Assembly (NCBI GenBank): GCA_030765065.1
Contig: CM060986.1
Span: 78,361,573-78,425,572, forward strand
Length of the DNA: 64,000 nt
Origin: Deroplatys truncata
Taxonomy: Eukaryota; Arthropoda; Insecta; Mantodea; Mantidae
Direction: 5' to 3'
Shown here: in pieces, positions 1-63,815 of the stretch
How the letters are laid out: the number at the start of each line of letters is the position of its first letter
Numbering within the stretch: position 1 is the stretch's first letter
Position numbers and translations under genes: made by a program
Notes under the pieces: model-generated
What the model saw: the letters and a program-made list of their open reading frames with translations, nothing else
Databases searched by the model: none
What the model was told of the DNA's origin: nothing

Positions 1-531
1 ATCTCAGAAATGGCTTATGCCACAAAAAAGCTTATTTGAAATAAATTGTGTGCCTTAAAGAGATCTACATTTGTTGTGTAATACGTTTATGTACATGTAG
101 TATTGCTTAAGGTTTACCAGTTATACAAGCTTATACAAAATTCCTTCCTAATGACTTTACAGGCTATTCTCAGAAAATTCAAGATATACATTTAATTTTT
201 TCAGAAAATATGTTTAATATATGGTATTTTAATAAAAATCATTAGTCGTTTCAGTAAATAAAAAATTTGGAAAATGTAAAAGGTAGCCTGGGGTTTGGGG
301 ATTTTCCTGATAATCTTCGTGTCGTATCTTTGGAAGTTTGGTATTTATCTGACCTTTCGTTTTTGAGTTATGCTGTTCACAGACAGACAGACACACACAC
401 GGACCGTTTCTAAACTGATTTTTTATTTTGAGGACCTCCAAACATGTATTTCCGGTGAAATCTCGGTATCGAATTTCTGGGTGGAATACAATACTTCCCC
501 TACTTACTTTACTATACGTAGTAGAGAAAGT
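1..531 (-). mobile_element. AF repeat copy (a), cut by window edge
   Basis: Reverse-oriented copy of the AF family (plus orientation is defined as starting ACTTTCTCTAC). The family head lies at the right end, finishing GTAGAGAAAGT at 521-531 and followed by AAAAA, matching the A5/T5 flank seen at other copies. It carries the conserved block GAGTTATGCTGTTCACAG and a short CA tract near 380-402. The tail half runs off the left edge of the window. No coding capacity seen; small open frames here are spurious. Confidence 0.85.
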
Positions 532-627
532 AAAAATGTACTCTTAAAAACCCAACGTGGATAGAAGAATCACTTTTTACATGAGCACTATAGTAATATG
601 AGGAATATGCGTGTTCTTTCCATAGGC

Positions 628-697
628 AGAGGAAGTCGTGGATTTCAACCCACGACCTTGGAATCAGAAGGCCAGCGCCTAACCAATTGAGCCACCC
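628..697 (-). repeat. tRNA-like remnant (SINE head)
   Basis: On the minus strand a box A-like TGGCTCAATTGG (complement of 682-693) is followed by a box B-like GGTTGAAATCC (complement of 640-650). It shares CCAAGGTCGTGGGTT with the SINE copies near 26.3 and 60.8 kb, so a truncated SINE head is more likely than a tRNA gene. No clean acceptor stem is visible. Confidence 0.5.
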
Positions 698-1005
698 AGA
701 ATGACAAATTTCTAGTGTTTAATAACACTAAAATCCATATTTATATATTTTGGCAATTTTGGTCTACTTTCATACTGTGTATTCTTAAGCACATGCCGTT
801 TGAATCATAATCGTTGGTGCAATTTTTGAAAAGTCATAAATAACAAAGTTTCCCATGTAAAGTGTAGGTTGGGAGACTTATTGCAAATCTAAGTGTCGTT
901 TCCTTAGAAGATAGTGAACTTAAGTACCAAGTTTGGTATTTAACCGACTTTCCGTTTTTGAATTATGCTGTTCATAGACAGGCAGACACACACACACACC
1001 TTTTT

Positions 1006-1886
1006 ACTTTCTCTACTACGTATAGTAAGTAGGGGAAGTATTGCATTCCACCCAAAAATTCGATACCGAGATTTCACCGGAAATACATGTTTTGAGACCT
1101 CCTGAATCCAAAAAAAAGAATTTTTGGAAACATGTCCGTGTGTGTGTCTGTGTGTCTGTGTGTGTGTCTGTGTGTGTGTCTGTGTGTGTGTGAACAGCAT
1201 AACTCAAAAACGAACAGTCGGATAAGCACCAAACTTGGTATTTAGGTTCAGTATCTTCCAGAGATGCGACACGAAGGTTTTCAAGAAAATCCCCCCACCC
1301 CAAACTACCCTTTACATGGAAGATTTTTCGAAAATTTTAATTTTCTCAAAAATGGCTCTAACGATTTTGATGAAAACATCATATGTTTAAGATAATGTCA
1401 TGGGAAATGAAATGTATATCTCGAATTTTCTGGGAATGTCTCCAAAAGTATTCTTTATTGTGAACAACTTTTGCATAACTGGTAAACCATAAGAGATACA
1501 CAAAATGTTACTACACAAAAAGTGTAGATCGCGTTAAAATACACAACTTATGTCATATACATTTCTTTTGTTGAGTGAACCGTTTTGGAGATATTGCTTG
1601 TTATTTCCTTAAATTTTCCAATACTTATACTTTTTCTCAAATTCGTTATTCATTTTTTTTATGTCCTGGACATGCAAAGAGAATGGAATGCACCACATAG
1701 CAACCAGCGTTAAAATATTTGACTATCGCTTAAAAGCTACCATATTCCCCTTGTATCTACAAGAAAATTACCAATAAGATTGACATATCGATATCTCGAT
1801 TAACATGAAGCATATGGAGAATAGGCGTTTTTTAAAAATAGTGTGTACAAGAGTAGAGAAAGTCATGTGAGTGTAACACATCAGAT
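1006..1886 (+). mobile_element. AF copy (c), full length, nested
   Basis: Full-length forward AF, 881 bp, from ACTTTCTCTAC to ACACATCAGAT. TTTTT at 1001-1005 and 1887-1891 flank it as a 5-bp target duplication, with the caveat that T-runs make the boundary ambiguous by a base. The GT-rich slot at about 1136-1193 mixes GTGTGT and GTCTGT units. It is inserted in the reverse-oriented AF host around it. Confidence 0.85.
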
Positions 1887-1901
1887 TTTTTTCTAATTTT
1901 T

Positions 1902-2760
1902 ACTTTTTCCACCACGTACATGGCAAGTAGAGAATATACTGCATTCCATCCAAATATTTGATACCGAGATTTCACTGAAAATACATGTTTTGAAGCCCCT
2001 TGAATCCAAATGAAGCATTTTGGAAACATATCCTTGTGTGTCTGTGAATATCATAACTCAAAAACGAAAAGTCGGATAGATTCCAAACTTTGAATTTGAG
2101 TTCAGTATCTTACAAGAATGTGACAGGAATATTTTCAAGAAAATTCTCCACCCCAAACAACACTTTACATGGAATATTTTTGGAAAATTTTGATTTTCTA
2201 AAAAAAAAATGGCTGTAACGATTTCGATTAAAATACCATATATTAAACATACTTACATGAAAAATAAAATGCATATCTTGAATTTTCTATAAATGGCCTA
2301 GAAAGTCCTCTTCATTTCAAAGGAATTTCGTATAACCTTGTGTAACTGATAAACGTTAAGCGATAAACGAAAACGTACCACGCAGAAAATGTAGATTTAT
2401 TTAACTCCCAATTTAGTTAAAATAAGTTATTGTCCCAGACGCCTCTGAAATATCCGTCATTAAAGGTTCGAATTGTTCAATACTTGTTACTCTTTTTTAA
2501 GTTCCATCGATGTTCAGTTTTCTCGCGATTGCATGGAAACAGTATGCTTTTAAAGCCAGCATATATCGTCCAGGGCTTAAGCCTTTGATTATCGCTGTTT
2601 CCTTTGTATGTATAACCAATTGTGTATGTAGCTAATTCTGCATAGGTTTATTTGGATTAAAATGTAGTAGATAGAAAAATAAGCTTCAGTAATAATATCT
2701 TGTATGCCCAATAATAAAGATAGAGGTTAGAGAAAGTCATGTGTATATATCATAAAAGGG
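1902..2760 (+). mobile_element. AF copy (d), diverged, nested
   Basis: Second forward AF in the same host. It starts ACTTTTTCCACCACG at 1902, is preceded by TTTTT (1897-1901) and followed by T6 from 2761. It is more diverged from copy c than c is from the later copies, and its slot is nearly empty of microsatellite (only a short tgtgtgtctgtg near 2035-2045). Confidence 0.75.
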
Positions 2761-2863
2761 TTTTTTCTTATTGAGGTGTACATGAAACATGTATTTTCGT
2801 TAAATTTACGGTATCAAATATGGATGGAAAATACAATACTGCCTATAGGTTAATAGCGAAAGT

Positions 2864-4394
2864 AAAAGAATAATTTTTAAATTTTATTTTGAGAGAGCTT
2901 CCCCAAGCCTTCCGTTATCGATGCCACTCTTCCTGGGTCGTTGTGGCTATTTCAACAACCTCTCTCAGAAAAAAGAAGCCTTTTTACAAGGCTCTGCACG
3001 CATGCTTCATTAAATCATCTCATACAACGCAAAAAGGGTATTTTTTTCGTTGGCCTCGTCAATTAAGAGAGATCTCATCATTATTTTGTTAAAGTTTAAA
3101 ACATGTGCTTCTCTCTCGTTTCGTTGTGAAGACCTTCTATAAAAATGTTCCGGGAAAGCCTGAAATCACAAACACTGGAATCCATTGTGGAGTGTTGTAT
3201 GTTATGTTCGCAGCACGAGAATTGCTATCGTTTGTTTGATTACTCTTTGCTCGTAAAACGAGCCTTGTAACACATGTCGAGAGTTAAAAACGGAATATAA
3301 CTACTAAAGGCATAAACACATAATTGCGCAAACTGCAAAAGACAGTTAGATCGTGTATATCGACTGGCAAAACTCGCATGGAATTAGGGGATGAGAACAG
3401 TTGCGTTATAGATTGTGCGTTTGGCCCACCAAATTACGTGGCACAAATTTGTAAAATTAAACTCTCCTAGCAGTGTGTAAATATTTATGGACCAACGTAA
3501 ACTGTATACCCAGCTGTAATTGAAAACAGATGGTATCCAGGGAAGAGAAGAGGGTAGTTGAGAGTGGAAAAGAGAAAGAATGGGAAAAACACATCGTGCT
3601 ATTTAAATCGTGGTGGAATTTTCAGAGCAGTCTACTTGCACAAACACCGGAAAACAACCTCTGACCCCTCGGCAGTGCCACAGCATAAATGAAAGAAAGG
3701 GGAAAAAAACGAAAACCTTTGTGCGGTATTTCGTTGTAATAAAAATACGTTACATACCTGTTATCTATCTTGTAATGTGGAAAACGCATAGCTCACCTTA
3801 CAAATTTCAACAGGAACACGTATTCCGCTCCTGACCAGCTTGAAATATACACAAAATTTAGATACGCTCCTAAAATATATGTTCCTGGTCCCATAATACA
3901 TTATTTTTACCTTTTTGCTGTTTTAATCTTTAATGATTAGATCTACACATAATTTTGCATTGCCAAGTTGCTAGAGTTTCATCAGTGCTTTCGTATATTT
4001 TGCAATATGCGCGCGCATTTCTTGACTACCACGTCGAGATTTTCTGCTCTGCTCGACATAGTCGTATATCTAAAGAGGATCTAAGGCACACATACCCATT
4101 TTGTGTCACTCAGTGACATTCCTCTCCTTTCTCCCTCCCAATTCTTGTGTTGGGTGTGGTGGGAATTTACGGCGATACAGTACTATAATAGAATAGCTCT
4201 TTCGACTATAGCTGAAACGAAGAACAAAACAGGGGACCGTTAAATCTCGTGCACCCTCTAGTGGCAACCCTGATCTAGGGGATGTGCCGTTTTCTCGTTT
4301 TAGAAAAAAGGATTCGCTAAATAATTATACTACATGACTCGCAGTAATCTCTCAGGTGCTCTTATTTTAATTTCTTATTATATTTAATCCGGTT
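2864..4394. other. No recognisable feature
   Basis: AT-rich sequence with only short open frames (longest about 75 codons) and no protein family, tRNA-like box or terminal repeat I could identify. Confidence 0.5.
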
Positions 4395-4745
4395 GTCTCC
4401 TTATCGCGGTGGTAGCGTAGCTGCTTAACAAACGGGAGACTCGAGTTCATTTCCCGGTACCGACGTAGGGATTTTCTCCCGCTGGAAGGCCTGGTTCAGG
4501 GTGCACTCAGCCTCGTTAAGTCCTGAGGGACCAATTGAGGAGCTACTTGATTGAAAAGTAGCGGCTCCAGGTTGAGCAGGTCGCATATACCGGCCGGAAG
4601 GGACCCGACGCGCTGACCACGTCCCATTCTCCAGTATCGCACCCCACTCATGCACCCGTTGTAGACAGAGATGGGGAACGCAGCGGCAGGGTGGCAGGCT
4701 TTGGCCCAGCAACAGACTGTTGCGCTACGGAGTTAGTTTATTATA
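4395..4745 (+). repeat. SINE-like tRNA-derived element
   Basis: Box A-like TGGTAGCGTAGCTGC (4410-4424) is followed by box B-like GAGTTCATTTCCC (4443-4455) and then a GC-rich body of about 280 bp, clearly different in composition from the AT-rich surroundings. This head-plus-body layout is that of a tRNA-derived SINE. I see no second copy in the window, so family status is inferred. The 95-codon open frame on the other strand is not thought to be coding. Confidence 0.55.
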
Positions 4746-4792
4746 ATTCATCCGCATACCCATATATCATCATATGTTATGAGACGTTAGCT

Positions 4793-4819
<27 letters not shown>
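4793..4819. repeat. (TC)n microsatellite
   Basis: Uninterrupted TC dinucleotide run just downstream of the SINE-like element. Confidence 0.95.
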
Positions 4820-4823
<4 letters not shown>

Positions 4824-5079
4824 TTCGTTTGGCGTGTTGAACCGATCAACAAGAGAGACATTTGCATGCATTTCCTTCCTGAGAGAGAATTGAATAGGTG
4901 TTACGAACCTTTTACCAGCACAGCATGTAAGTAATTATGAATACAGAGCTTAATTATTCTATATTTAAAAACATACAGAGGTTTTTATATCTTCGCTGCT
5001 TAGAGAAAACATTAGGAGGGCGTCACAGAACATGTTCAGAAAATTAAACAAGGATTGGTTTTAAAAGATTTAAATTATT

Positions 5080-6111
5080 TTATTGTTTTTCAAAATATTC
5101 CCCTTTAACATCAGCACATTTTTTGCTTTCGATGAAACCAGTCCTTAAAGCAATGATCCACTCTTCCTGAGGCATTTCAGAAATCAGGTTTTTATAATGT
5201 TCCGCTACTTCATCTAATTAAAAGTGATTATACGAATTTTATCTTTAATTTTTGGAAACAAAAAGAAATCGCAAGCTGCTAGTTCAGGGCTAAATGGTGG
5301 AGGGTCCATAGTCCTGACCTTAAGGGCATTCAGATACTCAGTTGTTAGTTTTGCTGTATACGAAAATGTGATCTCATGAAGTAACATTATTTTTCCTTTT
5401 GGGCGTTTTTCACGAACTTTTTCAAAAAATGTCTGTAAACAGACATTTGTTTACCAGTCGGCACTAACGGTAGGTACGTCTATCTCCTAATGCTATAGTA
5501 GCAATACGAATCGTTTTGGGAAAAACTAGCAACCATCTTCTTACCAGTGCTGCGAATTCGTCGCACTTTTTTAGGCTTAGGCTCTGTTCGAAGACCCACT
5601 GAGCCGATTTACTTTTCTTTTCAGGGTTTAACGATAAATCAAATATTCACCAGCAGCAACCACCAAATTTGTAGTGCCGCCTTGGGATTTTTCCACATTT
5701 TTTCTGCACCAATCAATGCGTTTTTGATCGGGAGTTAGTTTACGGGGAATCCATCGACAGCAAAGTTTATTCAAGTCTACCTGTTATTTTAAAATTTTTG
5801 TGTTTGACTCATACCAATGTCCAACGTCGCCTGAATAAGTCCATAAGATGTCCGTCGATCTTCTTCATGAATTGCTCAAACAGCGGCAATATTTTCATCA
5901 GTAACAGCAGTTTTAAGCGTTCTTCACGAAACTCATCACAAAGAAAAAACCCATCTCTCCTAAATTCGCCCTAGCAACTATAACTTTTACCTTAGATGGA
6001 ACTTCTTCGCCAAATGCATTTCTAAACGAATATTCACATTGTTTAGGCATTAATGATGATTTAAAATCGTAAAAAAATCATAACCCGTAAATGTTCTGTA
6101 GTCAAATTCAT
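5080..6111 (-). pseudogene. Mariner transposase pseudogene
   Basis: Decayed mariner (Tc1/mariner, DDD type) transposase read on the minus strand. The start is taken at the ATG complementary to 6109-6111, because MNLTTEHLRVMIF there matches the mariner N-terminus; the stop TAA at 5080-5082 follows GEYFEKQ. The span of about 344 codons equals the family norm. Landmarks in order: YDFK/SSLMPKQ, TAVTDENIAAV, WIPRKLTPDQKR, then SPELAACDFFLFPKIK near the C-terminus. Many stops and frameshifts interrupt it. The first two catalytic aspartates look lost (G where VTGDE is expected, E where HHDN is expected); the third, in ACDFF, remains. No convincing TIR pair was found, so element ends are open. Extinct. 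Confidence 0.85.
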
Positions 6112-9354: not shown

Positions 9355-10215
9355 ACTTTCTCTACTAAGTATAGTAAACAGGGGAAGTATTGTACTCCAC
9401 CCAAAATTCTACATTGAGGTTTCACCGGAAATACGTGTTTTGAGTCCCCTTAAATCCAGAAAAAAAGCATTTTTAGAAAAAGATCCGTGTATGTGTGCGT
9501 ATCTTTGAACAGCATAACTCAAAAACGAAAAGTCGGATAAATACCAAACTTGGTGTTTAGGCTCAGTACTTTCGAAAGATGCGACAGGAAGGTTTTCAGG
9601 AAAATCCCTAAAACCCAGACTACCCTTTACATGGAAGGTTTTTCGAAATTTTTTGTTTTCTAAAATGGCTCTAACGATTTAATTAAAATACCACATGTTA
9701 AAGGCATTTACGTTACAAATAAAATTTATAACTTGAATTCTCTGGAAATAGCCTGTGAAGTTAATTTTATTTGGAAGAAATGTTGTATAGCCTTGTGTAA
9801 CTAGTAAACTAAGCTATAGATGAAAAGTACTACACAAAGAATGTAGATCTCTTTAAAACACACAATCTATTTAAAATAAGTTTTTGTAGCATAAGCCGTT
9901 TCTGAGATATCCGTATTAAAATTTCGAATTGTTCAATATTTGTCATTCCTTTAAAATCCCATCGATGTTCAGTTGTTTCTCGTGATTGCATGGAAACAGT
10001 ATGGAATTTTAAGGCCAGCCTATAACGTTCAGTTCTCAAACATTTGACTATCACTGTTCCCTTTGCACTTACAACGAAATGTGTAACGTAGTTATTTTTG
10101 CAAAGGCTTATTTGGATTAAAATATATAGACAGAATAAACTTTAGTAATAATAGTTTGTATATTCATTAATAAACTATAGAGGGTAGAGAAATTCATGTT
10201 AATGTATCATCAGAT
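9355..10215 (+). mobile_element. AF copy (e)
   Basis: Near full-length forward AF from ACTTTCTCTAC to ATCATCAGAT. Its microsatellite slot has collapsed to gtgtatgtgtgcg. The flanks lack a clear T5 duplication, consistent with an older insertion. Confidence 0.8.
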
Positions 10216-10676: not shown

Positions 10677-11509
10677 ACTTTCTCTACCACGTACATAGTA
10701 AGTGGAGGATATGGCATTTCACCCAAAAACTAGATAGGGATATTTCACCGAAAACATGTGTTTTGGGACCTCCCCTGAATCCAAAAAAAATCATTTTCAG
10801 AAAAGGGTCCGTGTGTGTGTCAGATAGACACCAAAGTTGGTATTTAGATCTAGTAACTTCCAAAGATGCAACATGATTTTCAAGGAAATCCCCTAAACCC
10901 CAAACTACCCTTTACATGTAAGATTTCTCGAAATTTTTATTTTATAAAAAACGACTAAAACTTTTTACTAAAATGTCATATATTGAAGATATTTACGTTA
11001 CAAATAAAATGGATAGCTTAAATTTCCTGAGAATAGCCTGCAAAAAGCCTACACAATAGAAATATTGCATTAGCATTAGCCACTTTCATCTGCGGCATCC
11101 TTTATAACTGGTAAGGCGTTAAGCTATAAACGAAAATGTGCTACACAAAAAATGTATATCTCTTTAAAACACCCAATTTATTTCAAATAACTTTTTTGTG
11201 ACACAGCCAGTTCCGAGATATCCGTTATTAATGGTTCGAATTGTTCAATACTTGGTCATTCTTTTACAGTCCTGTTAATATTCAGTTGTTTCTTGCGATG
11301 TCATAGAATGAGTATGGAATTTTAAGACCAGTTCTTAAACATTTGACTTGCGTTGTTTCTTGTGTAACGAATTGTGTAATGCAGCTATTTCTGCAAAGGT
11401 TTATTTGGATTAAAATGAAGTAGATAGGAAAACTACTTTCGTAAGAATAATTTGTACATCAGCAAGGTATAGAGGATAGAGAAAGTCATGTGAATGTAGA
11501 ACATCAGAT
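10677..11509 (+). mobile_element. AF copy (f)
   Basis: Forward AF from ACTTTCTCTACCACG to ACATCAGAT, followed by a T-run. The slot region is shortened, and the conserved AACAGCATAACTCAAAAA block has been deleted along with part of its microsatellite. Confidence 0.8.
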
Positions 11510-13320: not shown

Positions 13321-13639
13321 ATATGTCTCTCTGTCTATCTATCTTGTAACATCGTCCAAAGAAATAATTGTACCAGGTTTTGCATAGGTATACTATACAA
13401 ACAATAATTATGTGACGCTGGCTTTGCGAAAAGGTGCGGACAGAAGAGGGAGAAAAACTGCCGTTCGGGCATTTTGTTCGGCAAACAAAGCGAGTGAAAC
13501 AAAACAGAGAAAAGTGGTAAAACAAATTCAGTGCAGACACTAATTATTTCGTAAATGTATATTTCCTTTATACACCTAATGCGAAAATATTCTGATGTGT
13601 TATATTCCACAACTTTCTCCAGTCACTATTATTTATTTT

Positions 13640-14346
13640 ACGTATCTTCTATAAACTATTCTTACAGAAGCTTATTTTTCTATCTTCTTCATGTTGGTCC
13701 AGATAAACGTTTGCCTCAGTAGATACATTACACATTTCATATAGGAACAAGAAGATTGAAGCAATAGTCAAATCTTTAAAAGACGGGCCGTTATAAGCAG
13801 ACTTTGAAATTCCATAATCTTCGCATGACATCATGAAAAAACAAAATTAAGGTGACCAAGCACTTAAAAATATAAATTACTGAAAAAATCAAACCAAGAG
13901 CAACAAATATCTTAGATATAGTTAATGGCACCAAAGTACGTGTGTGTTTAGTTAGTCATGCGGATATTTTAAACATATAGTATCTTAATCAAAATTCTTA
14001 AAGCACTCTTGAGAGAGAGAAAAGTAACGAAGGTTATACCTTTTAAAGGGTAGCTTTGAGTGGGGATAATTTTCTTGAAAATGTTCGTGTCGCATCTTTG
14101 GAAGATGCTGAACTTAGTATGAGCTTCGGTACTTGTGCAACTTTTATTTTTTATTTATATGTTTCACGGACACAAACACACGCATGAAAACTCATATACG
14201 AGCGCTTTTTTCTTTTTAATTTCTTTTTTTTTTTTTTTTTGATTCGGTGGACCTCAACGCACGCATTTCCATAAAATGGCAATTTCGAATTTTTGGGTGG
14301 AATACAATACTTCCTCTTCCTAAACTAGGTGTGTCATAGAGGAAGT
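13640..14346 (-). repeat. AF copy (g), degenerate
   Basis: Reverse AF in two recognisable parts. The tail-side part (13645-13845) reads actattcttacagaagc like other copies. The head-side part ends in ggtggaatacaatacttcc and gaggaagt at 14346. The middle is largely replaced or deleted, and the microsatellite slot is replaced by a T-run near 14216-14240. Confidence 0.65.
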
Positions 14347-20830: not shown

Positions 20831-21954
20831 CGTAAATTGTCGCTATAAATTCAAGAAAAGCAATGAAAATGGCTTCAAAGCCTTAAAAAGGAGCAAGGAA
20901 GCAATTACTAAGAGCACAGTGTTTGAAGAGCAAAAAGGAACAGCTAAACGTGCAATGCTTTCAAAGAAGAAAATGCAACGATCGACTATTACAAATCCTA
21001 AAGTTCCCTGGGGACATTGTCTCTTTCTCCTAGGGTTATTTATGTCACCGTTTCCTTTTTATAGGCAGGGAAGGTAGCGTGCATATTGCTGGTAGCATAC
21101 GGAACCTTACGGCCGCAACCAATTTGAAAGGCCGTGTTTTTCTAAACCTGAACAAGGGAATAAACCCATTTGAACCGCAGTAAAATGACAAAGCAGTCTA
21201 GTGCTCTTGTATTTATGGGTAGCCACTGCGGTCAGCGATTTGTTACTTGTGGAGCAGAACGTTGTGAAAGTGCTCGCAGCTGATTTGAATTTATGTAGTA
21301 TGAAGGCATCGTGCCGTAACTCACGTCAATCCCGCTGGATGGCGCGGCAGTCACTACGGCCTGAACATTATTTTCTTTACGTACCATAAACCGAGAAATA
21401 GGGCAGTTTTCACATACGATTTTATAGCAGCGTGGTCTCAAAATTGTAGTCATCGCTGCAACAGTGATTCTTTCTTTCCGTTTTACTGGATCATTCGCCT
21501 GCCGGAAGTATGTGCTGTTTTGTCCACAGAAATTTCGTTTTAGAATACTTTTGGGTTAAACATTGATCCTTCAGTCGTTTGAAAGAAGTATTTCTAGCGC
21601 AATAGCTTAAAACTTACTGCAATAAATTCTAGAAAATAAAATCTGTCGCACTCGTGCTACTTTCTCTACCCCTTACAACTTTGTATAATCCTCACATAAT
21701 ATAGTAGTCAGTAAAAATCGGGTTATCTTGTGTTTACCTTTTCCGAGGCCAAATTCGTGCGTGAAACTGCGAGCAATATTATTTACATCCCCGAGGCTTA
21801 CTACACCAGTCTTCAATCAGGTGAGATTAAATGATGTTTTGAGAATTATGAGCAAATTTTCGTATCATCTCTGCATCACTACATCTCATTTCCTTTTTCT
21901 TCACACAATCCGCATTTTGATAACGTACTATATTATCTGAATTTTTCAAGCCGC
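20831..21954. other. Spacer between R copies 2 and 3
   Basis: 1.1 kb without recognised protein. A 111-codon plus-strand frame (20742-21077) starts within R2 and is Lys/Ser-rich in its middle; I do not recognise it. A lone ACTTTCTCTACCCC at about 21659 is the only AF-like scrap. Confidence 0.4.
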
Positions 21955-24527: not shown

Positions 24528-25252
24528 ATCTGATGTGTTACACTCACATGACTTTCTCTACTCTTGTACAATCTATTTTTACAAACGCCTATTCTCCATA
24601 TGCTTTATGTTAATCGAGATATCGAGATGTCAATCTTATTGCTAATTTTCTTGTAGATGCAAGGGGAATATGGTAGCTTTTAAGCGATGGTCAAATATTT
24701 TAACGCTGGTTGCTATGTGGCGCATTCCATTCTCTTTGCATGTCCAGGACATAAAAAAATGAATAACGAATTTGAGAAAAAGTATAAGTATTGGAAAATT
24801 TAAGGGAACAACAAGCAATATCTCGAAAACGGTTCACTCAACAAAAGAAATGTATATGACATAAGTTGTGTATTTTAACGAGATCTACATTTTTTGTGTA
24901 GTAAAATTTTGTCTATCTCTTATGGTTTACCAGTTATGCAAAAGTCGTTCACAATGAAGAATACTTTTGGAGACATTCCCAGAAAATTCGAGATATACAT
25001 TTCATTTCTCATGACATTATCTTAAACATATGATATTTTAATCAAAATCGTTAGAGCCATTTTTGAGAAAATCAAAATTTTCGAAAAATGTTCCATGTAA
25101 AGGGTAGTCTGGGGTGGAGGGATTTTCTTGAAAACCTTCGTGTCACATCTCTGGAAAATACTGAACCTAAATACCAAGTTTGGTGTTTATCCGACTGTTG
25201 GTTTTTGAGTTATGCTGTTCACAGACACACACACACACAGACACACAGACAG

Positions 25253-25286
<34 letters not shown>

Positions 25287-25425
25287 ACACACACGGACAT
25301 GTTTCCAAAAATGCTTTTTTTGGATTCAGGAGGTCTCAAAACATGTATTTCCGGTGAAATCTCGGTATCGAATTTTTGGGTGGAATGCAATACTTCCCCT
25401 ACTTACTATACGTAGTAGAGAAAGT
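24528..25425 (-). mobile_element. AF copy (i), full length, nested
   Basis: 898-bp reverse AF from ATCTGATGTGTTACACTCAC to GTAGTAGAGAAAGT. It sits in an A-run immediately after the host block CATAACTC, and its CA microsatellite (about 25228-25292) is one of the longest AF slots in the window. It is highly similar to copies c, l and s, suggesting a recently active subfamily. Confidence 0.85.
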
Positions 25426-30127: not shown

Positions 30128-30280
30128 ACTTTCTCTATCAGTACCTAGAAGGTAGAGAAGGGTTGAATTCCGTTCAGAAATTACATACGAAATTTCGTCG
30201 GAAATATATGTTTTGAGGCTCCCTAATTAAAAAAGGCACTTTAGAAAAATGTCCGTATGTGTGTGTGCATTTGTATGTCT

Positions 30281-30324
30281 CCCCCCCTCTCTCTCCCTCT
30301 CTCTCTCCCTCTCTCTCTCTCTCT
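30281..30324. repeat. (CT)n in AF slot
   Basis: C7 followed by CT dinucleotides interrupted by CCC, in the position where most AF copies carry GT/CA repeats. Confidence 0.9.
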
Positions 30325-30371
30325 GCCTCTTTGTCCGTGCCTGTGTGTCAGTGAACAGCATAACTCAAAAA

Positions 30372-31185
30372 ATCTGATGTGTTACACTCACATGACTTTC
30401 TCTAATCTTGTACAAACTATTTTTACAAACACTTATTCTCCATATGCTTCATGTTAATCGAGATATCGAGATGTTAATCTTATTGCTAATTTTCTTGTAG
30501 ATGCAAGGGGAACATGGTAGGCTTTAAGCCATAGTCAAATATTTTAAGATCTGGTTGCTATGTGGAGTATTCCATTCTCTTTGCATTACCAGGACAAAAA
30601 AAATGAATGACGAATTTGAAAAAAAACTACAAGTATTAGAAAATTTAAGGGAATAACAAGCAATATTTCGAAAATGGTTCACTCAACAACAAAAATGTAT
30701 ATGACATAAATTGTATATTTTAACGCGATCTACATAAGTCGTTCACAATGAAGAATACTTTTGGAGATATTCCCAGAAAATTCGAGATATACATTTCATT
30801 TGTCATGAAAATATCTTAAACATATGATATTTTAATCAAAATCGTTAGAGCCATTTTTGAGAAAATTAAAATTTTCGAAAAATGGTCCATGTAAAGGGTA
30901 ATCTGGGGTGGGGGATTTTCTTGAAAACCTTCGTGTCGCATCTCGGGAAGATACTGAACCTAAATACCAAGTTTGGTGTTTATCCGACTGTTCGTTTCTA
31001 AGTTATGCTGTTCACAGACACACAGACAGACACACACACACACAAAGACACACACGGACATGTTTCCAAAAATGCTTTTTTTTTATTCAGGGGTCCTCAA
31101 AACATGTATTTCCGGTGAAATCTCGGTATCGAATTTTTGGGTGGAATACAATACTTCCCCTACTTACTATACGTAGTAGAGAAGT
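30372..31185 (-). mobile_element. AF copy (l), full length, nested
   Basis: 814-bp reverse AF from ATCTGATGTGTTACACTCAC to GTAGTAGAGAAGT. It is bounded by AAAAA at 30367-30371 and 31186-31190, the cleanest 5-bp duplication among the AF copies. It lacks about 45 bp around the ACAAAAAATGTAG region relative to copy i. Confidence 0.85.
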
Positions 31186-31862
31186 AAAAAGAAAAGTCCG
31201 CTAAGTTCCCAACTTGGAATTTAAGTTCAGTATATTAAGTATACTGTATAGTTAAGTTCAGTATACGACCCTAAGATTTTCAAGAAAATCCTCCATCCTA
31301 ACCACCCTTTACAAGGGCTTTTTGAAAATTTTTATTTTCTAAAAAACGGCTAACGATTTTGATTAAAATACCATAAATCTTTACATGATAAATAAAACCC
31401 ATATCTTGAATTTTCTGGGAAAAGCGTTTGAAGTCCTCTTCATTCTGAGGAACTTTGTATAATCTTGTACAACTGATAAACGTTAAGAGATAGACGAAAA
31501 CGTACTCCATAGAAAATGTAGATCTCTTTAAAATACACAATTTATTTGCAATAAGTTTTGTGGCATAAGCCATTTCTGAAATATTCGTTATTAATGGCTC
31601 GAATTGATCCGTACTTTTTCATTCTCTTAAAGTGCTGTCAACATTCGGTTGTTTCTCGCGATTGCATGGAAACAGTATGAAATGTTAATACATGTTCGAT
31701 TCTTAAACATTAGAATATCGATGTTCCCTTTGTATCGAAAACGAAGTGTTTAATTAGGTATTTCTGTAAAGTTTTATTTGCATTAAAATAAGCTTTAGTA
31801 TAAATATGTTTAATATCCACTAATAAAGATAGATGGTAGCGAAAGTCGTGTGTGATCAGAAT

Positions 31863-45087: not shown

Positions 45088-45922
45088 ATCTGATGTTATA
45101 CATTCACGTGACTTTCTGTACCCTATCTCATTTATTAGTGGGTATACAAACTATTCTTACTAAAGCTTATTTTTCTGTCTGCTAGAGTTTTAATACAAAT
45201 AAACCTTTGCAGAAATAGCTACATTATACATTTCATTATAAATACAAGGGGAACAGCGATAGCCAGATATTAAAGAATTGGACACGATTCCGACCTTAAA
45301 ATTGCATACTGTTTCCATGCAACGCCAAAAACAACTGAATGTTGACAGGGCTTTAAGAGAATGACAAGAAATTGAGAAATCAAACCTTTAATAACGAAAA
45401 TCTCAGAAATGTATTATGCCTCAAAAAATTATTTTAATGAATTGTGTGTTTTAAAGAGCCCTACATATTTTGTGTCCACGTTTACCAGTTATACAAGATT
45501 ATACATAATTTGTTCTAAATGAAGTGGAATTCACAGGCTATTTCCAGAAAATTTAAGATATGCATTTTTTTTGCGATGTAAATATCTTTAATATATGGTA
45601 TTTTAATCAAACTTTTTAGTCAATTTTAGTAAATAAAAAATTTCTAAAAATCATCCATGTAAAAGTTCTTATGGGGTGGGAGGATTTTCTTTAAAATCTC
45701 CGTGTCACACCTTTGAAAGGTTCTGAACCTAAATACTAAGTTTGGTGTTTATCCGACTTTTCGTCTTTGAGTTATGCTGTTCACAGACACAAATACGCGC
45801 AGACCTTTTTCTAAAAACCGCTTTTCTTGAATTCAGAGCATGTATTTCCGGTGAAATCTCGAAATCGAGGTTTTGGGAGGAATACAATATTTCACCTACT
45901 TGCTATAGGTAGCAGAGAAAGT
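45088..45922 (-). mobile_element. AF copy (n)
   Basis: Full-length reverse AF from ATCTGATGTTATACATTCACG to GCAGAGAAAGT. The A-run before its left end matches the usual A5 flank. The slot holds only CACAGACACAAATACGCG. Confidence 0.8.
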
Positions 45923-55585: not shown

Positions 55586-57050
55586 AGCATAACCCAAAAA
55601 CCAAACCTTGGATAAATTCCAAACTTGTATATAACGCCATCATCTTCCAAGGGTGCGTCATGAATAATCAGGCCCCAAAATAGCCTTTGCATGGAAAAAT
55701 TCTAGTTATTTTTTATGTTCTCAAAATTTGATCTAACGATTTTGATTAAAGTACCTATGTTTAAGGTATCTGTATGACACACTATATATCTCAAATGTTT
55801 GCGAATGGATTTGTCTAATTTGTAAATCGTAAGAGATCAACAAAGACGTACTATATAAGGAAACTGATGTGTTACATTCACATAACTTTCTCTACCCTCT
55901 ATCGTTTATTAGTGGGTATATACATTTTTCTTACTAAGGTTTATTTTTCTATCTACTACACTTTAATCTCAATAAAGCTTTGCAGAAATAACCACATTAC
56001 ACATTTCGTTAGGATACAACAAGAACACCGATAGTCAAATGTTTAAGAACTGGGTGCTATACGCTGGCCTTAAAATCCTATACTGTTTCCACCCAATCGC
56101 CAGAAACAGCTAAAACTATCGAAGGGTTTTAACAAGAATGACAAATTATTGAACAAATTGAACCATTAATGACGTAAATGGCTGATGCCACAAAAAAGTT
56201 ATTTGAAACAAATAGTGTGTTTTAAAGAGATTTATATTTTTTGTGCGGTTCGTTTTGGTCTATCGCTTAGCATTTATCAGTTATACAGAGTGTTTCAGGA
56301 CCTCTGCGACAAACCCTAAGGAACCATAGATCTCACAGAGGGGAACGTTTCTTGTCAAACAACCACCATCCTCCGACGCATATTTACGGAGTTATTTACC
56401 CCGTTTGAAGCGTATCCGATAGAATAGATTTGAGAGGCACAGCCAGTACACTTTGACTCTCTGTTTGTTTATAAACACTGAATCAAGTGACATCGCCTCT
56501 TTCTTGTCCCTTACATCTGCTTAGGTTTGATAAGTCATATACCATGCATAAAACCAAACTGAAAGGCATCTTCCTATTTATCGCATAGCTTTGAATTGAA
56601 CGCACGATGGTATTAAATTGTGTATCCTGAACGCAACGTAGTGAATGCTTCCGAAGTTTTCCGAATCGAACTCTCTCTGGCTGTTACTCATTTATTTTGT
56701 CGTAGGCTGTACGTCGTAGAGAAACTGAATATCTAGATCAGGTTAAAATACGTAATTTATGTCGCATACATTTTTGGTGGCATTAATCATTTTCGAGATG
56801 TCTTTTATTATTGGTTTGAACTGTCAAATACTTATACATTTCAAACTTCTAAGCCACTTGTCCTTTTCTTTTTTTCTCTCCCCTTTGTGGTAATACAAAG
56901 AGAATGGAATGGCAAGGCCATCATGTTGGGACCCGCTTTTAAAGGAGTTGACAATCGCTTAAGCCTATTGCATTCTCCTTATACCCGCAACGAAATCTGT
57001 AATAAAACCATTTCTGCAAATATTTATCTCGATTAATATAAAGTAGATGC
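55390..57050 (+). mobile_element. AF host copy (p)
   Basis: Forward AF. The head (55390-55862) has a GA-rich slot (about 55550-55582) and ends at the A-run that normally precedes ATGTAGATCGCG. It resumes at about 56726 with ATATCTAGATCAGGTTAAAATACG and fades at 57050 against a tRNA-like module. Confidence 0.75.
55863..56725 (-). mobile_element. AF copy (q), nested, interior replaced
   Basis: The left part (55863-56287) is a normal AF tail in reverse. The extreme right end TACGTCGTAGAGAAA (to about 56724) is the AF head tip. The 430 bp between (56288-56715), starting AGTGTTTCAGGACCTCTGCG, share nothing with AF. This is either another insertion plus deletion or an AF-ended composite. Confidence 0.6.
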
Positions 57051-57120
57051 CTCTGTGGTCTGATGGTTAGCATGCTAGCCTCCAAATTAGAAGGTCCCGG
57101 GTTCTATTAGCCAGGATTAT
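57050..57120 (+). repeat. tRNA-like module
   Basis: Box A TGGTCTGATGGTTAGC (57056-57071) and box B-like GGGTTCTATTAGCC (57099-57112) at natural spacing. It truncates AF host p, so it is probably the head of a SINE extending to about 57245. Confidence 0.55.
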
Positions 57121-57433: not shown

Positions 57434-57505
57434 TATTCTGTTAGCGCAGTGGTTAACATGCTGGAAAGTCATGGTAAAAGTTGGAAGTTCAAATCACGCC
57501 TGCGA
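57434..57505 (+). repeat. tRNA-like module
   Basis: TTAGCGCAGTGG (57441-57452) is a canonical box A, and AGTTCAAATCA (57486-57496) a good box B. Spacing is close to tRNA but acceptor stems do not pair. Confidence 0.55.
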
Positions 57506-58410: not shown

Positions 58411-59370
58411 TGCAGTATTACGTTTATTTAGTACTAACTAACCCATAACCTAGTTATATATTTATGTAAAGACGTGAAGGATGCTCAGTATAAGGAATTC
58501 CCCTACTTGGTATAGGTAGGAATAACTTGCAACAAAAAACGAGAATACCTCTTTTCCTATTTTATTTCTCCCATTATAACTGTTTTCCAATAATATAAAT
58601 GTTTCTGTCACATAGTAATTACTCGGTAATTGTGACTAGCCTCTCACGTAACACATATTATTACACGACTTTATCTATTCATTCTAAAAATTGTAGATAT
58701 TTAACAAGCCAAAGAAACATTCTACCTTCCGGTAATTATTACATGATTAACGAAATACACTATATATTGACTCCGTTACAATTTTTAAAATTATTTTAAC
58801 GTTATATATTATCACAACGTTTGAATCTTGCTTCCCCCCAAGGTAGCAAAATTTATTTATTTCAAGTAAGAAAACGTTACAGCCATCTCTCCCTGTCTGC
58901 TTCCCCCTGTCTACCTGGCACTTCAAGATAATTAATGTTGGAAGGTTACTCACCAAAGCTGTTGATTAGAAAAGTTTGAATAGTCCGAAAAAATAGTGCA
59001 CCTTGACTCACATTTCGTATTTGCGTACTACCGGTAGGTGTGCCTGTCAGAGTCTCCTCGTCTTCTTACTTTGCCAAGTCACCCAAGCTAGGAGAAGATG
59101 AATAGTTCTCGTTTCCTCCGTTGTAGTGCTGCCGTCGCCTCACTATTGGAGACTTTATTCGCCAATGACATACTCCGACGCCCAACTCTTGAATATGCCT
59201 TTCTGATACTATGGACGTAGTTCAAACTAGCGGAAGGGGAGAACATGGCACAGCAGCAAAGGAGTGATAAGCTTTTATCTTTTCGATGGAACCGTGGCTG
59301 CGGAAAGGTATCTTGAAATGTTAGGAGAACCAAAATTGAAAAAGGACTATCTTGACAGTGAAGTGGTCAA

Positions 59371-59542
59371 TTGATAAAATAAATGAGTCGAATGATATTA
59401 AAAGCCTTCATTTACATCATGATGGTAAAAAATCTGGACGATCGTTTCGAGACTTCAAGGTCTCATCTTCTGCAGGATTTTTGGAAGTCGACATGATGTA
59501 AGTGAAGGCTTTTAATATCATTCGACTCATTTATTTTATCAA
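59371..59542. mobile_element. Fold-back (hairpin) MITE, 172 bp
   Basis: Left arm 59371-59422 starting TTGATAAAATAAATGAGTCG and right arm 59492-59542 are near-perfect inverted copies (about 50 bp), with a 70-bp loop containing a smaller GAGACTT/AAGGTCTC hairpin. It could form a long hairpin. It lies between two parts of a transposase fossil. Confidence 0.85.
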
Positions 59543-59599
59543 ATGTTAAGAGAAGTTATTATGAATTAGACAATACCTCTGTACTTGAAGCTGTACGAA

Positions 59600-59830
59600 A
59601 AGAAAACACATTTGGTAGGAAGACGATGCTCCACCGTACTACGGATTACACGTCCATGCATTTTTGATGACAATTTTCAAGAGTGTATAGTAAGGCGGGG
59701 TAAAATCTATTGGCCTCCAAGATCACTGGACCTCACACGTGTGATTTTTCAAGTGGAGGATATTGAAAGACATTGTTGTCGCTAAAAAAAATCATTAAAT
59801 CTACAGCATTTAAGGGATTTAATTGATCAA
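59600..59830 (+). pseudogene. Transposase fossil, C-terminal part
   Basis: Plus-strand pieces: EDDAPPYYGLHVHAF (second catalytic Asp region), RRGKIYWPPRSLDLTRV (third-Asp motif with the Asp lost) and NLQHLRDLIDQKCETI. Spread over two or three frames. Probably the other half of the element represented at 58090-58410. Confidence 0.7.
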
Positions 59831-60815
59831 AAATGTGAAACCATTATGGTAATGATGGAGAGTTGTGTGACAAAATATGTAAAACAGTGTTGAAACATGT
59901 GTTAAATGTACAGTTTCAGTAGAACAAATTACTTTGTATAAACCATTAAAGCTAGGAAAAACTGTAGTGTATTTTCGGTTACCTGACTTAACTGGCATAT
60001 GCCGCAAACAATATATTAAAGTAAATAGAATAATAGAGAATAATAGTTATAAGAAGAGCTTGTTGGAGAATTGGTAGGGAAATTTATGTGAATGTAACGC
60101 ATCGTTATATTTTTCTATGTTGTGCTCTTCCTTCGTATCAGAATACTATCCACTGTGTTGAACTGCGTGTGTAGTGTTCCCTAAATGTTGTTATTATCCC
60201 CCTGGATAAGAGTCGCTGTATGTGAGGACATGAGGACAACTACAGTGTTATGTTTATCGGTGTACTCGTTCTGGGCACCCAAGGGCATTTTTTGTACTAA
60301 CAGGATTTTAAAAGCGTTGCAAGATATTTTCTGAACTCCGGCACAAAACGCCGATAAAAGCACTCCAGGAAAAGCATCCTTGCTATCCCAACCTTCAATA
60401 CATGCGGTATGCATAGAGAAAAAGAGCATTTGGAACTCGCCCTTTTTATTTGAATACTTTGGGTCAACGTTTTACAAATTAGAATAGTTTTATTCCTCTT
60501 GCATTCTTCTAGTGTCCAGGACAATAAGTACAACTTTAGTATGAGTCAAATTAACATACTCCGACCTAAAATTAAGGTAATGGGTTACTGAATTTAGGCC
60601 AAAAATTGGAAGTTCTCATATTTACTACTCTTAAGTTTCATACTATCAAAAATATCCAATCAAAGTTTTAAAGCGTTACTTCAACTCCAAAAGGCTACTA
60701 ATCTCACTTCTTTTAAATAACTACAAATAATTTACTTCAAGTTTTTAAACTGTCCAGTACCAAATAATATAGACTCCATTTCTTTAAAGAAATGTGTTTT
60801 AACTTCTGTATATAA
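59831..60815. other. No gene; AF tail scrap
   Basis: A possible AF tail scrap reads GGTAGGGAAATTTATGTGAATG near 60075. Open frames of 62-82 codons are unrecognised. Confidence 0.4.
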
Positions 60816-61082
60816 GGGGGTGGTCCTCTAGTTCCCAAGGTCGCGGGTTCAAACCCGGCGGAGGGCGATGGATTTTTTTCGGGCGTAAAAATCCTTAGCT
60901 TGGCTTCCTTAGGAAGGGAAGTAAAGCCGGTGGTCCCGTGTAGTAGATTTACGGCACGTAAAAGAACCTCAAGCCTGATAAAGAGGCCTCTGAGCAAAAT
61001 TACCTGTCTTTCACGCCCAATATGGAATGGGACGCTAAGAACCATAGTAGTTAAACAGCGTCCATAAATAAAAAATAAAAAA
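60816..61082 (+). mobile_element. tRNA-derived SINE (S1), copy 2
   Basis: Box B GGGTTCAAACCC (about 60846-60857) and the S1 body. The box A part is partly deleted. The tail CCATAAATAAAAAATAAAAAA stops exactly where the mariner tip begins. Confidence 0.85.
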
Positions 61083-62288
61083 GAGGGTGTCCAGTAAAAA
61101 AGCAAGGAAAAATCTTTTTTCGTAAACAACGCACCTTATTTCTCGACATAGTCTCCTTTCATGGCTATATACTAGGTCCAGCGATCCTCCAGCTTTTTCA
61201 TCCCGTCGGAAAATAGATTCTGTCAAACTCTGCAAAATATTCGTTTATGGCGATGATCACTTCCTCATTTGATTAAAATTTCTTCCCACCAAGCCCAAGT
61301 TTCAAGTTATGGAACAGGAGGTAGTCGCTTGGGGTTGGTTAAGCCTGAAGAGTAGAGTGGTTGAGGAACCAATTCAAAACCCAACCCATGCACTTTCACC
61401 ATTTTAATCGCTGATGTGTGGTATGGCGCATCCTGATGAAAGAGTACATTTTTGCATGTCACCCTGAGTCTTTTTAGGTCAGTGCAAGTTTCAAGCAATC
61501 CAACAATAATGAATAATAGGGGCCAGTTATGGTGCTGTCTTTCTCCAAGTAATCTATGAGGATTATTCCTTGGTAATCCCCAAAAAACAGTGGCCATCAC
61601 CATACCTCTAACAAAATGATATTTGCCTTCTTCGGTGCACTTTCACCGGCCTTTGTCCATTGTTTTGACTGCTGTTTTGACTCTGGTGTGTATTGATGGA
61701 TATAAGTTTCATTGGCGATCACAAATCGGCGCAAAATATCTTGCGGATTGCAATTAGACATGGCCAGACACTGTGTTAAGATGTCCTTCCGGAAGCGCTT
61801 TTGGTCGACTCGCACACAGCTTCTTCATAGCCAATTCTCAGTGCAGGGTATTGTGTACTCGCTCAGTTGAGATGTCTACAGTCTCAGCAATCTCACGAAT
61901 TGTTATTTCGCAGCCCTGCATTACCATATCATGGATTTTGTAATGGTTTTGAACGGCCGGACACGAGCTTCGTGTTCGATGCTTGTCCGCCCGCATTTAA
62001 ATTCATTTATCCAAAAGTAAATAATCTTCAATGATGATGCAGAGTCCGCGTGAACTTCATCCAGTTCTGTTTTGATTGTGCGGCGGTCCAACCATTCAAA
62101 TGAAAATGTTTAACAACACGACACTCGGTTTTTTTTCCATTTTCGATCACAGCCAACACATTGACCATTTCGGACGGCTGCCAATAATAACTTTACGGTG
62201 TACATTGTTGAAACCTTTGAATAATGAAGCTGCAACAAAAATGTTAATTCTTTCCTGGAAAATTACCACTCCCATCAAACCACCCTCG
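61083..62288 (-). mobile_element. Mariner element, about 1.2 kb
   Basis: Tips GAGGGTG (left, from 61083) and, on the complement of the right end, CGAGGGTGGTTTGA beside TA (62289-62290). CGAGGGTG-type tips next to TA are common in insect mariners. Inner parts of the TIRs have diverged. It encloses a broken transposase on the minus strand. Confidence 0.8.
61136..62168 (-). pseudogene. Mariner transposase pseudogene
   Basis: Minus strand, about 344 codons from ATG (complement of 62166-62168) to TAA (61136-61138) after GDYVEK, the usual mariner length. In order: ECRVVKHFHLNGWTAAQ, INEFKCGRTSIEHEAR, IREIAETVDIS and MKKLC (helix-turn-helix), DQKRFRKDILTQCLAM, RRFVIANETYIHQYTPESKQ, MATVFWGLP, VLFHQDAPYHTSA. 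The first catalytic Asp is Asn (ANETYI instead of xDETWI), the second is present (HQD), the third is lost in the degraded ...YSSGLTNP. Several frameshifts. Dead. Confidence 0.88.
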
Positions 62289-62447
62289 TAGATAGGCTTT
62301 TCTAGTTTATAACAAAAACTTTCACTAGAAAACAAACACTTCAAAATAAACGGTAAGAACGTGTAAAAACAAAGCAAAGGAAGATGGAAATAGTTTAGTT
62401 GCTAAAAATATGCATGTTCCACTTTAAACTTGACATCTCGAAAGTTT

Positions 62448-63815
62448 ATTGCTCTACTACTTACCTATACCTAGTGGAGTGCATTTTAGAAAATAGTCTA
62501 TGTGAGAATGTGTATCTGTCTGTCTGTGAACAGCATAACTCACAAATGAAAAGTAGGTTAAACATCAACCTTGGTATTTATGTTCAGCATCTTCCGAGGA
62601 TGTATCAAAAAGATTTTTAAGAAAATCCCCCACAACAAACATTTACATGGAAAAAGTTTGCTTTTTTACTTTCTCTACTACGTATAGTAAGTAGGGGAAG
62701 TATTGCATTCCACCAAAAATTCCATACTGAGATTTTACCGTAAATACATGTTTTGAGGTGCACTGAATGCATATAAAGCATTTTTGTAAACATGTCCGTT
62801 TGTATGTCTGTGTCTGTGAACAGCATAACTCAGAAACAAACAGTCGGATAAACACCAAACTTGGTATTTAGGTTCAGTATCTTCCAGAGATACGACACGA
62901 AGGTTTTCAAGAAAATTCCCTACCCCAGATTACCCTTTACATGGAACATTTTTCGAAAATTTTAATTTTCTCAGAAACGGCTCTAACGATTTTGATTAAA
63001 ATATCATATATTTAAGATACTTTCATGACAAATAAAATGTATATCTTGAATTTTCTGGAAATGTCTCCAAAAGTATTCTTCATTGTGAACGACTTTTGCA
63101 TAACTGGTAAACCATAAGAGATAGACAACATTTTACTACACAAAAAATGTAGATCGCGTTAAAATACACAATTTATGCCATACATTTTTTTTCAGTGAAC
63201 CATTTTCGAGATATTGCTTATTATTCCCTTAAAATTTTCAATAGACAAATGGGAATTCGTTATTCATTTTTTGTCTGGTAATGCAAAGAGAATGGTATAC
63301 TCCACATAGCAACCAGCTCTTAAAATATTTGACTATCACTTAAAGCCTACCAATTCCCAAGAACTTTAGCAATAAGATTAACATCTCGATATCTCGGATA
63401 ACATGAAGCATATGGAGAATAAGCGTTTGATAAAGTAGTTTGTACAAGAGTAGGGAAAGTCATGTGAGTGTAACACATCAGATTTTTTCCTCAGAAATGG
63501 TTCCAACGATTTTGATTAAAATACCATAAGTTTAAGAAATTTGTATTATAAGTAAAATGTATATCTGAATTGTCTTTGAATAACCGGTGAAATCCTCTTT
63601 ATACTGGATGAATTTTGTATAACTTGTAAACTTTACATCCAACTATTGATTCGGTTTCCTCTTTCCCCTTGTATCTAAAACTAAATGTGTAATGAAACGT
63701 TGTGCAAAGGTTTATCTGGATTAACATGAAGCTTTTGAAAGCATAGCGTGTAGGAACACTATACAAATACACCATAGAGGGTAAAGAAAGGTATGTGAAT
63801 ATAATACATCTAAAT
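62448..63815 (+). mobile_element. AF host copy (r)
   Basis: Forward AF with a degraded head. It carries CTGTCTGTCTGTGAACAGCATAACTC, stops in the T-run after TGGAAAAAGTTTGC (62661), resumes at 63484 with TTTTTCCTCAGAAATGG and ends GGTAAAGAAAGGTATGTGAAT near 63812. Confidence 0.75.
62668..63483 (+). mobile_element. AF copy (s), full length, nested
   Basis: 816-bp forward AF from ACTTTCTCTACTACGTATAG to ACACATCAGAT, flanked by TTTTT at 62663-62667 and 63484-63488. The slot is reduced to TTTGTATGTCTGTGTCTG. Host and insert have the same orientation here, unlike the other nests. Confidence 0.85.

What the first reader, a model, noticed from the sequence alone, without database searches (positions are those of the whole stretch)
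1..63815. AF: an abundant non-coding mobile family with T5 target duplications
Seen: about 18 copies or pieces of one ~0.85-kb sequence in 64 kb, in both orientations, with fixed ends (ACTTTCTCTAC ... CATCAGAT). The best copies lie between two TTTTT/AAAAA runs (1001/1887, 30367/31186, 62663/63484). GTAGAGAAAGT near the 3' end is the inverse of the first 11 bases, and the last 25 bp can form ATGTG/CACAT. No coding region. Inference: a non-autonomous transposon that targets T-runs. The termini fit no superfamily I can name with confidence (not TA, TTAA or 8-bp, and no poly-A tail).
Basis: partly seen in the sequence, partly recalled or inferred. Interest (0 to 1): 0.75.

Follow-up and report, generated by a model that had tools for sequence, protein, structure and literature searches.

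The report
Helentron-dependent repeat (HINE), ordinary kind

Summary
In detail: the window carries 4 well-preserved and 4 decayed near-complete copies of a ~0.85-kb non-coding element, plus pieces, with fixed ends ACTTTCTCTAC...CATCAGAT in T-runs. The genome (4.29 Gb) holds 101,358 exact copies of the 37-base 3' end. 'Non-autonomous transposon that prefers T-runs' is right, but the superfamily can be named: a HINE, the non-autonomous form of a Helentron (endonuclease-carrying Helitron). It has 11-bp subterminal inverted repeats, a 5' inverted repeat, a microsatellite and a short palindrome by the 3' end. A likely autonomous partner, ~10.4 kb with an open 2,324-codon frame (Rep with the Helentron motif, PIF1 helicase, C-terminal endonuclease), shares about 740 bp of 5' sequence and the last 34 bp. 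The 'T5 target duplication' is not supported as stated: empty sites already hold 7-8 T, filled sites gain about 4-5 T, five T have a sharp border only on the 5' side, and 0 of 4 informative copies show matching 5-mers; in pure T-runs it cannot be excluded. Side result: 9 of 11 sampled autonomous copies carry a captured HINE 5' half, supporting a published self-insertion model.

The parts
1006..1886 (+). HINE copy 1, 881 bp, mean 99.6% identical to 39 sampled genomic copies
1001..1005 (+). TTTTT directly before the 5' end; over 90 ends these five positions are T in 82-89 of 90 and position -6 in 28 of 90
1006..1016 (+). 5' subterminal inverted repeat ACTTTCTCTAC (same in 42 of 43 copies)
1029..1039 (+). 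inverted repeat complementary to the 5' subTIR (GTAGGGGAAGT); forms a 5' hairpin, z -3.02, 1 of 200 shuffles as good
1138..1192 (+). GT/CT-type microsatellite inside the left part (limits approximate)
   Evidence: read from sequence
1653..1660 (+). internal T8 run ('site 1'), the commonest self-insertion site in the 39 sampled copies; 8 T in 41 of 43 copies
1853..1863 (+). 3' subTIR GTAGAGAAAGT, 23 nt from the 3' end
1865..1881 (+). 3' palindrome ATGTG...CACAT; 3' 23-mer identical in 42 of 43 copies
24528..25425 (-). HINE copy 2, 898 bp (mean 96.2% to sampled copies), with an older HINE beside it
30372..31186 (-). HINE copy 3, 815 bp (92.2%), nested in an older HINE about 30128-31545
62668..63483 (+). 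HINE copy 4, 816 bp (88.7%), older HINE sequence on both flanks
10677..11509 (+). decayed full-length copy, 833 bp
13590..14346 (-). decayed full-length copy, 757 bp
45088..45922 (-). decayed full-length copy, 835 bp
55862..56726 (-). probable decayed full-length copy, 865 bp, ends diverged
9355..9910 (+). 5' part of an older copy (matches element 1-589 at 73%)
1902..2396 (+). 5' part of an older copy directly after copy 1 (element 1-524, 70%)
1..531 (-). 5' part of an older copy cut by the window edge (element 1-587, 69%)

Best explanation
The element is a HINE: a short, internally deleted relative of an autonomous Helentron that lives in the same genome. The Helentron's Rep-helicase-endonuclease protein would recognise the shared ends, nick at the 5' T/ACTTT end, peel off one strand with the helicase until the 3' palindrome/CATCAGA signal, and join it into a T-run elsewhere, probably through a single-stranded or circular intermediate. 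Shown here: shared ends, shared 5' sequence, many insertion sites, T-run targeting, an open RepHel-endonuclease frame. Inferred from known Helitron/Helentron biology: nicking, strand peeling, circle, and that this protein moves this element.
For: Ends and anatomy fixed in 43 copies. Autonomous element A (C9:66062003-66078002, L059+L060): open frame of 2,324 codons with Helitron_like_N (1.1e-27) and PIF1 (1.8e-28) (first 2,258 codons), Rep motif YYQRVEFQMRGSPHEH and C-terminal Exo_endo_phos_2 (1.9e-6, 28.2 bits, cut-off 27.4). Its 3' end matches the HINE's last 34 bp at 94%; 11 of 11 long-frame copies examined carry that end followed by 4 or more T. Its 5' end is ACTTTCTCTACTACGTATAGTAAGTAGGGGAAGT, and the HINE matches the first ~650 bp at 93-96% and a second block, to element position 679-741, at 85-89%. 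Published Helentron/HINE features (PMC4067079, passages and section 7) match: subTIRs, 3' palindrome, microsatellite, T-rich target, HINEs as deletion derivatives, Rep motif with S between G and P, fused endonuclease.
Against: HINE positions about 750-847 found no match in A, so the HINE is not a simple one-step deletion of the copy examined. The 3' palindrome is thermodynamically weak. The 3' subTIR lies 23 nt from the end and the palindrome 5 nt, nearer than the 38-60 and 8-35 given for the mite HINEs. No second frame over 200 codons for an RPA protein was seen in A. 2 of 11 autonomous copies (L069, L081) have rearranged 5' regions. No transposition was observed.
Confidence: 0.95

Rival explanations
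1. A cut-and-paste DNA transposon (MITE) with a 5-bp T5 target-site duplication.
For: 25 of 43 copies have exactly 5 T before the 5' end and 42 of 43 have at least 5 T after CATCAGA; the net gain against paralogous empty sites is 4.8 T counted that way, the size a T5 duplication would give.
Against: No terminal inverted repeats at the two ends themselves; the inverted repeat is 23 nt inside on the 3' side. In the 4 of 43 copies with a non-T base within 5 nt of either end (L018, L102, window 24528, window 30372) the two flanking 5-mers differ; single later mutations could explain some. In 7 of 90 5' ends the bases before ACTTT are ATT, as if they travel with the element, though two of the seven (L038, L078) share 11 flanking bases and so may not be independent. 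The partner with the same ends encodes RepHel-endonuclease.
Confidence: 0.03
2. A canonical Helitron family (5' TC, 3' CTRR, insertion between A and T).
For: The RepHel protein family is shared; another RepHel type in this genome (L031) has the L form of the Rep motif.
Against: Ends are not TC...CTRR; the target is a T-run; the partner has S in the Rep motif and a fused endonuclease.
Confidence: 0.01
3. A satellite or segmental duplication rather than a mobile element.
For: A regular ~3.4-kb tandem array at the start of contig C1 contains HINE copies, and tandem 5' halves occur.
Against: Copies have fixed ends with unlike flanks at scattered places and in both orientations; self-nested insertions interrupt and then resume the host copy at one position. 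The array looks like a HINE trapped in a larger repeat.
Confidence: 0.01

Closest known systems
HINE / DINE-1 (Helentron-associated interspersed elements; PMC4067079)
   Same: Non-coding; subTIRs; 3' palindrome; 5' inverted repeat and microsatellite as in DINE-1; T-rich target with variable T number and no demonstrable duplication; autonomous RepHel-endonuclease partner sharing the ends.
   Different: A sequence family I could not match to a described one (only a text search for two end motifs). Here 5 T have a sharp border before the 5' end and the variable run is on the 3' side; the 3' subTIR (23 nt) and palindrome (5 nt) lie nearer the end than in the mite elements.
Cg_HINE elements of the Pacific oyster (PMC7492417, passages)
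   Same: 5' subTIR of 11-12 bp with a complementary IR 1-12 bp away, microsatellite in the left module, subTIR then palindrome in the right module.
   Different: No central satellite-like repeats noticed in copy 1; here a likely autonomous partner was found, which that paper could not relate to its elements.
FoHeli (Helitron2-type elements of Fusarium oxysporum, PMC5148889, passages)
   Same: Several 5' termini joined to one 3' terminus, explained there by self-insertion followed by a start at the outer 5' end and a stop at the first 3' end; this fits the composite autonomous copies here.
   Different: FoHelis lack the endonuclease and have other insertion preferences.

Membership tests
Helentron / HINE | subterminal inverted repeats of about 11-15 bp | tested here: met
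   ACTTTCTCTAC / GTAGAGAAAGT, 5' form exact in 42 of 43, 3' form exact in 41 of 43, 23 nt from the 3' end in 43 of 43
Helentron / HINE | short palindrome near the 3' end | tested here: met
   ATGTG...CACAT present, 3' 23-mer identical in 42 of 43; but the predicted fold is no better than shuffles
Helentron / HINE | insertion in T-rich sequence with at least two T on both sides | tested here: met
   at least 2 T left and 3 T right (after CATCAGAT) in 43 of 43 copies
Helentron / HINE | no target-site duplication | tested here: inconclusive
   0 of 4 informative copies show a matching 5-mer, but the net gain of 3.8-4.8 T in homopolymer sites cannot be split between carried T and duplicated T
Helentron / HINE | autonomous partner sharing both ends, with Rep, PIF1-type helicase and C-terminal endonuclease | tested here: met
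   that it moves the HINE was not tested
Helentron / HINE | Helentron form of Rep motif 2 (S between G and P; F/Y-x-R before it) | tested here: met
   YYQRVEFQMRGSPHEH against the motif in PMC4067079 section 7
Helentron / HINE | place in the Helentron clade of a RepHel tree | not tested
   no tree of proteins was built
canonical Helitron (Helitron1) | 5' TC and 3' CTRR ends, insertion between A and T | tested here: not met
   ends ACTTT...CAGAT in T-runs
MITE / DDE transposon | terminal inverted repeats | tested here: not met
   the inverted repeat is 23 nt inside on the 3' side in 43 of 43 copies
MITE / DDE transposon | fixed-length target duplication | tested here: inconclusive
   5-mers differ in 4 of 4 informative copies; 39 of 43 are pure T and uninformative
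SINE | A-rich or simple tail at the 3' end | tested here: not met
   fixed CATCAGAT end before a T-run
SINE | RNA polymerase III promoter head | not tested
   only an Rfam scan of the window at gathering score, no match

The most novel reading that the evidence does not exclude
The sampled autonomous Helentron lineage is a composite: an older Helentron inserted in the T-run of a HINE, and later jumps started at the HINE's outer 5' end and stopped at the first 3' end, so the parasite's 5' half became the master's new 5' end. Because the family keeps hitting its own T-run (18,234 left junctions of this type in the genome), self-insertion would be a routine way for these elements to renew their 5' ends, and a genome-wide excess of 5' over 3' halves, if a fair count confirms it, would be a record of 5'-to-3' rolling-circle polarity.
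Probability: 0.5. Interest if true: 0.45.

Novelty: new member of a known kind. Interest (0 to 1): 0.28.

Why it matters
It names the superfamily of a repeat that would make up roughly 2% of a 4.3-Gb genome if each of the 101,358 exact 3' ends has a ~0.85-kb body (an estimate), and ties it to likely partners with open frames. The many self-insertions with known empty sites, and the composite autonomous copies, make this genome a good place to test how Helentrons choose T-runs, which end they start from and where they stop.

Tried and rejected
Tandem satellite origin: rejected because of nested insertions and unlike flanks.

T-count test at paralogous empty sites: a net gain of 4.8 T counted from the body ACTTT...CATCAGA (3.8 if the last T belongs to the element); this alone cannot tell carried T from duplicated T. 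Test at an interrupted run (ATACATTTCTTTTGTTGAG): 5 right junctions of that exact form exist; their left sides could not be read, so it stayed open. One search counted 352 right junctions at that site with at most 6 T; the 100 listed have match lengths that mean 5 or 6 gap bases (letters not shown), so short runs seem not to be used.

Left against right self-junction counts (18,234,955) are NOT a fair ratio: the right anchor is longer and misses a variant right half (TTTTTTGTCTTGGATATGC). In 6 loci read (L115, L116, L117, L119, L120, L121) I count by eye 10 left and 7 right halves; a seventh, L118, was too rearranged and was dropped. Unequal crossing-over could also multiply left halves in HINE arrays; it does not explain autonomous copies at unlike sites.

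Rfam on the window and on L113: nothing at gathering score. Text search for the end motifs: 64 papers hold one of them, 20 titles listed, none of these on repeats. Organism: not identified, no search was sent for it. Never answered: a count of 5' ends, of ATACATTTC left junctions, of autonomous-type 3' ends and of TATT-type 5' ends.
Full report
What was checked. The window lies in a 4.29-Gb, 818-contig genome at C12:78361573-78425572. Copy 1 runs from 1006 to 1886. BLAST with it finds 34 hits of 60 bp or more covering 12.6% of the window, against none for 20 randomised queries. Four well-preserved copies (1006, 24528, 30372, 62668) and four decayed near-complete copies (10677, 13590, 45088, 55862) have both ends on one strand; the other hits are pieces, several of them 5' parts.

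The family in the genome. The search of the own genome found 1,440 candidate places and scored 40, all 99-100% identical to copy 1, itself included. I fetched the other 39. They average 99.7% pairwise identity (98.9-100); this sample is the best-scoring end of the family, so the figure is not an average age. The exact 37-base 3' end (with three T) occurs 101,358 times, with none for the reversed control; this count includes copies in a tandem array.

Anatomy. In 43 copies (39 plus 4 of the window) the first 11 bases are ACTTTCTCTAC in 42, followed by a complementary inverted repeat (AGTAGGGGAAGTAT at positions 23-36 in 42); GTAGAGAAAGT (41 exact) lies 23 nt from the end in all 43, and the last 23 bases are identical in 42. 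For copy 1 the 5' pair folds better than 199 of 200 shuffles; the 3' palindrome does not stand out (58 of 200 as good). A GT/CT microsatellite sits near element position 135-187 (read). These are the parts listed for HINE and DINE-1 elements in PMC4067079 (passages) and for oyster HINEs in PMC7492417 (passages).

The likely autonomous partner. A search with Pfam PF14214 gave 152 matches (291 candidates, 150 scored) in the own genome and none in 14 control genomes; I count 18 listed matches in uninterrupted frames over 2,000 codons. One copy (A, C9:66062003-66078002) was read in full. Its frame of 2,324 codons holds Helitron_like_N, PIF1 helicase, DUF6570 and an N-terminal stretch matching Herpes_teg_N, the Rep motif YYQRVEFQMRGSPHEH, and a C-terminal endonuclease domain (Exo_endo_phos_2 1.9e-6, 28.2 bits against a cut-off of 27.4). 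The helicase part matches PIF1 structures and the Helitron transposase Helraiser (7lcc, 2.4e-25) in the PDB. PMC4067079 section 7 (read) gives S between G and P and a fused Exo_endo_phos_2 as Helentron marks. A ends in GTAGAGAAAGTTATGTGAATGTAACACATCAGAT, 94% identical over 34 bp to the HINE's end. Eleven autonomous copies (A plus 10, all chosen for long frames) were examined: 11 of 11 carry this end followed by 4 or more T. Their right flanks are not all unlike: four (L064, L068, L070, L082) continue in the right half of a HINE's own T-run and a fifth (L076) in a variant of it. The 5' end of A is the HINE 5' end.

Composite 5' ends. In A and 8 of the 10 others a block of HINE bases 1-651 (u1, 93-96%) stops at the HINE's internal T-run and is followed by a second, older 5' block (u2, 87-89%); two copies (L069, L081) are rearranged. 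In six of the nine (A, L065, L071, L073, L077, L079) the sequence before u1 is unlike; in three (L063, L067, L075) it is the left half of a HINE at the same T-run, which fits nested insertion but does not prove the border there. In a tree the nine u1 blocks form one clade (96/86) and the nine u2 blocks another (100/99); the groups L075+L077, L071+L079 and A+L065+L067+L071+L079 appear in both, while L063 and L073 are placed differently. So the two-block unit was copied as one. The simplest history is that an older Helentron entered a HINE's T-run, and later copies began at the outer 5' end and ended at the first 3' end. PMC5148889 (passages) proposes this route for Fusarium Helitrons with several 5' ends, so the idea is not new; whether a Helentron example is already in print I did not establish (listings only).

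Self-insertion. Of the 39 fetched copies, 21 have HINE sequence touching at least one side of the element; what share chance would give was not tested. For the internal T8 run the genome has 33,953 intact sites, 18,234 left junctions and 7,955 right junctions of one form, each with zero reversed controls. All four good copies in the window have older HINE sequence on at least one flank.

The T-runs. At that site the empty run is 7-8 T (mean 7.59 over 69 listed sites, T inferred from match length because letters were not shown; 8 T in 41 of 43 read copies), left T mean 5.15 (82 of 97 are exactly 5) and right T mean 6.24 (46 sites with letters): a net gain of 3.8 T, or 4.8 if the last T of CATCAGAT is the target's. 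All these listed sites are on C1. Of the lists of 100 I dropped 31 array rows from the empty set, 3 left rows with a non-T base in the gap, and 54 right rows shown without letters. Over 90 distinct 5' ends in the fetched letters the five bases before ACTTT are T in 82-89 of 90 and the sixth is T in 28. On the 3' side (92 ends) five T are near-fixed and then T fades (0.85, 0.67, 0.48). So the left T have a sharp border and the right run varies like a target. Two models fit a pure T-run: five T carried at the 5' end, or a T5 duplication. Four of 43 copies have a non-T base that can tell; in none do the two 5-mers agree, though a later mutation could explain single cases, and window 30372 has an altered 5' end. 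In 7 of 90 ends ATT stands before ACTTT, which suits carried bases; two of the seven (L038, L078) share 11 flanking bases and may not be independent. I therefore hold the title's claim to be unproven and unlikely, not impossible.

Verdict. The element is a HINE and its partner most likely this Helentron. The mechanism (nick, strand peeling, joining into a T-run) is taken over from that family and was not shown here. Novelty is a new family of a known kind; the composite autonomous lineage is the part a specialist might use.

Noticed in passing
G000:C1:20306-122592 (L113, L114): A regular tandem array with a ~3,409-bp unit near the start of contig C1 (places). The three units read each hold one ~833-bp HINE copy (about 89% to copy 1; neighbouring stretches 95.6-98.4% identical): a HINE caught in a satellite.
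   Followed up: partly
L031 / L061-L062 (G000:C4:128864265-128880264): A second RepHel lineage in the genome with the L form of the Rep motif (WQKRGLPHAH), as in canonical Helitrons; its frame is broken.
   Followed up: partly
L059+L060, N-terminal part of the long frame: The Helentron protein starts with a stretch matching the Herpes_teg_N family (1.2e-8) and a long array of charged SERKRNKEYMEQAREDEEYKE-type repeats; differing frame lengths suggest that their number varies between copies.
   Followed up: no
G000 contigs C1-C16: The lengths shown for C1-C16 (C11 not shown) are 134-339 Mb except C16 at 707 Mb; from memory this recalls animals with many autosomes and a giant X, such as bush-crickets, but the species was not identified.
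   Followed up: no
window 60737-61135 (-): A 132-codon frame contains SAGFEPATLGTRGPP, a peptide I recall from repeats in arthropod gene predictions; probably another repeat.
   Followed up: no
window 21659-21673 (+): An isolated match to the 5' end (ACTTTCTCTACCCCT) with no further element sequence there in the BLAST list.
   Followed up: no
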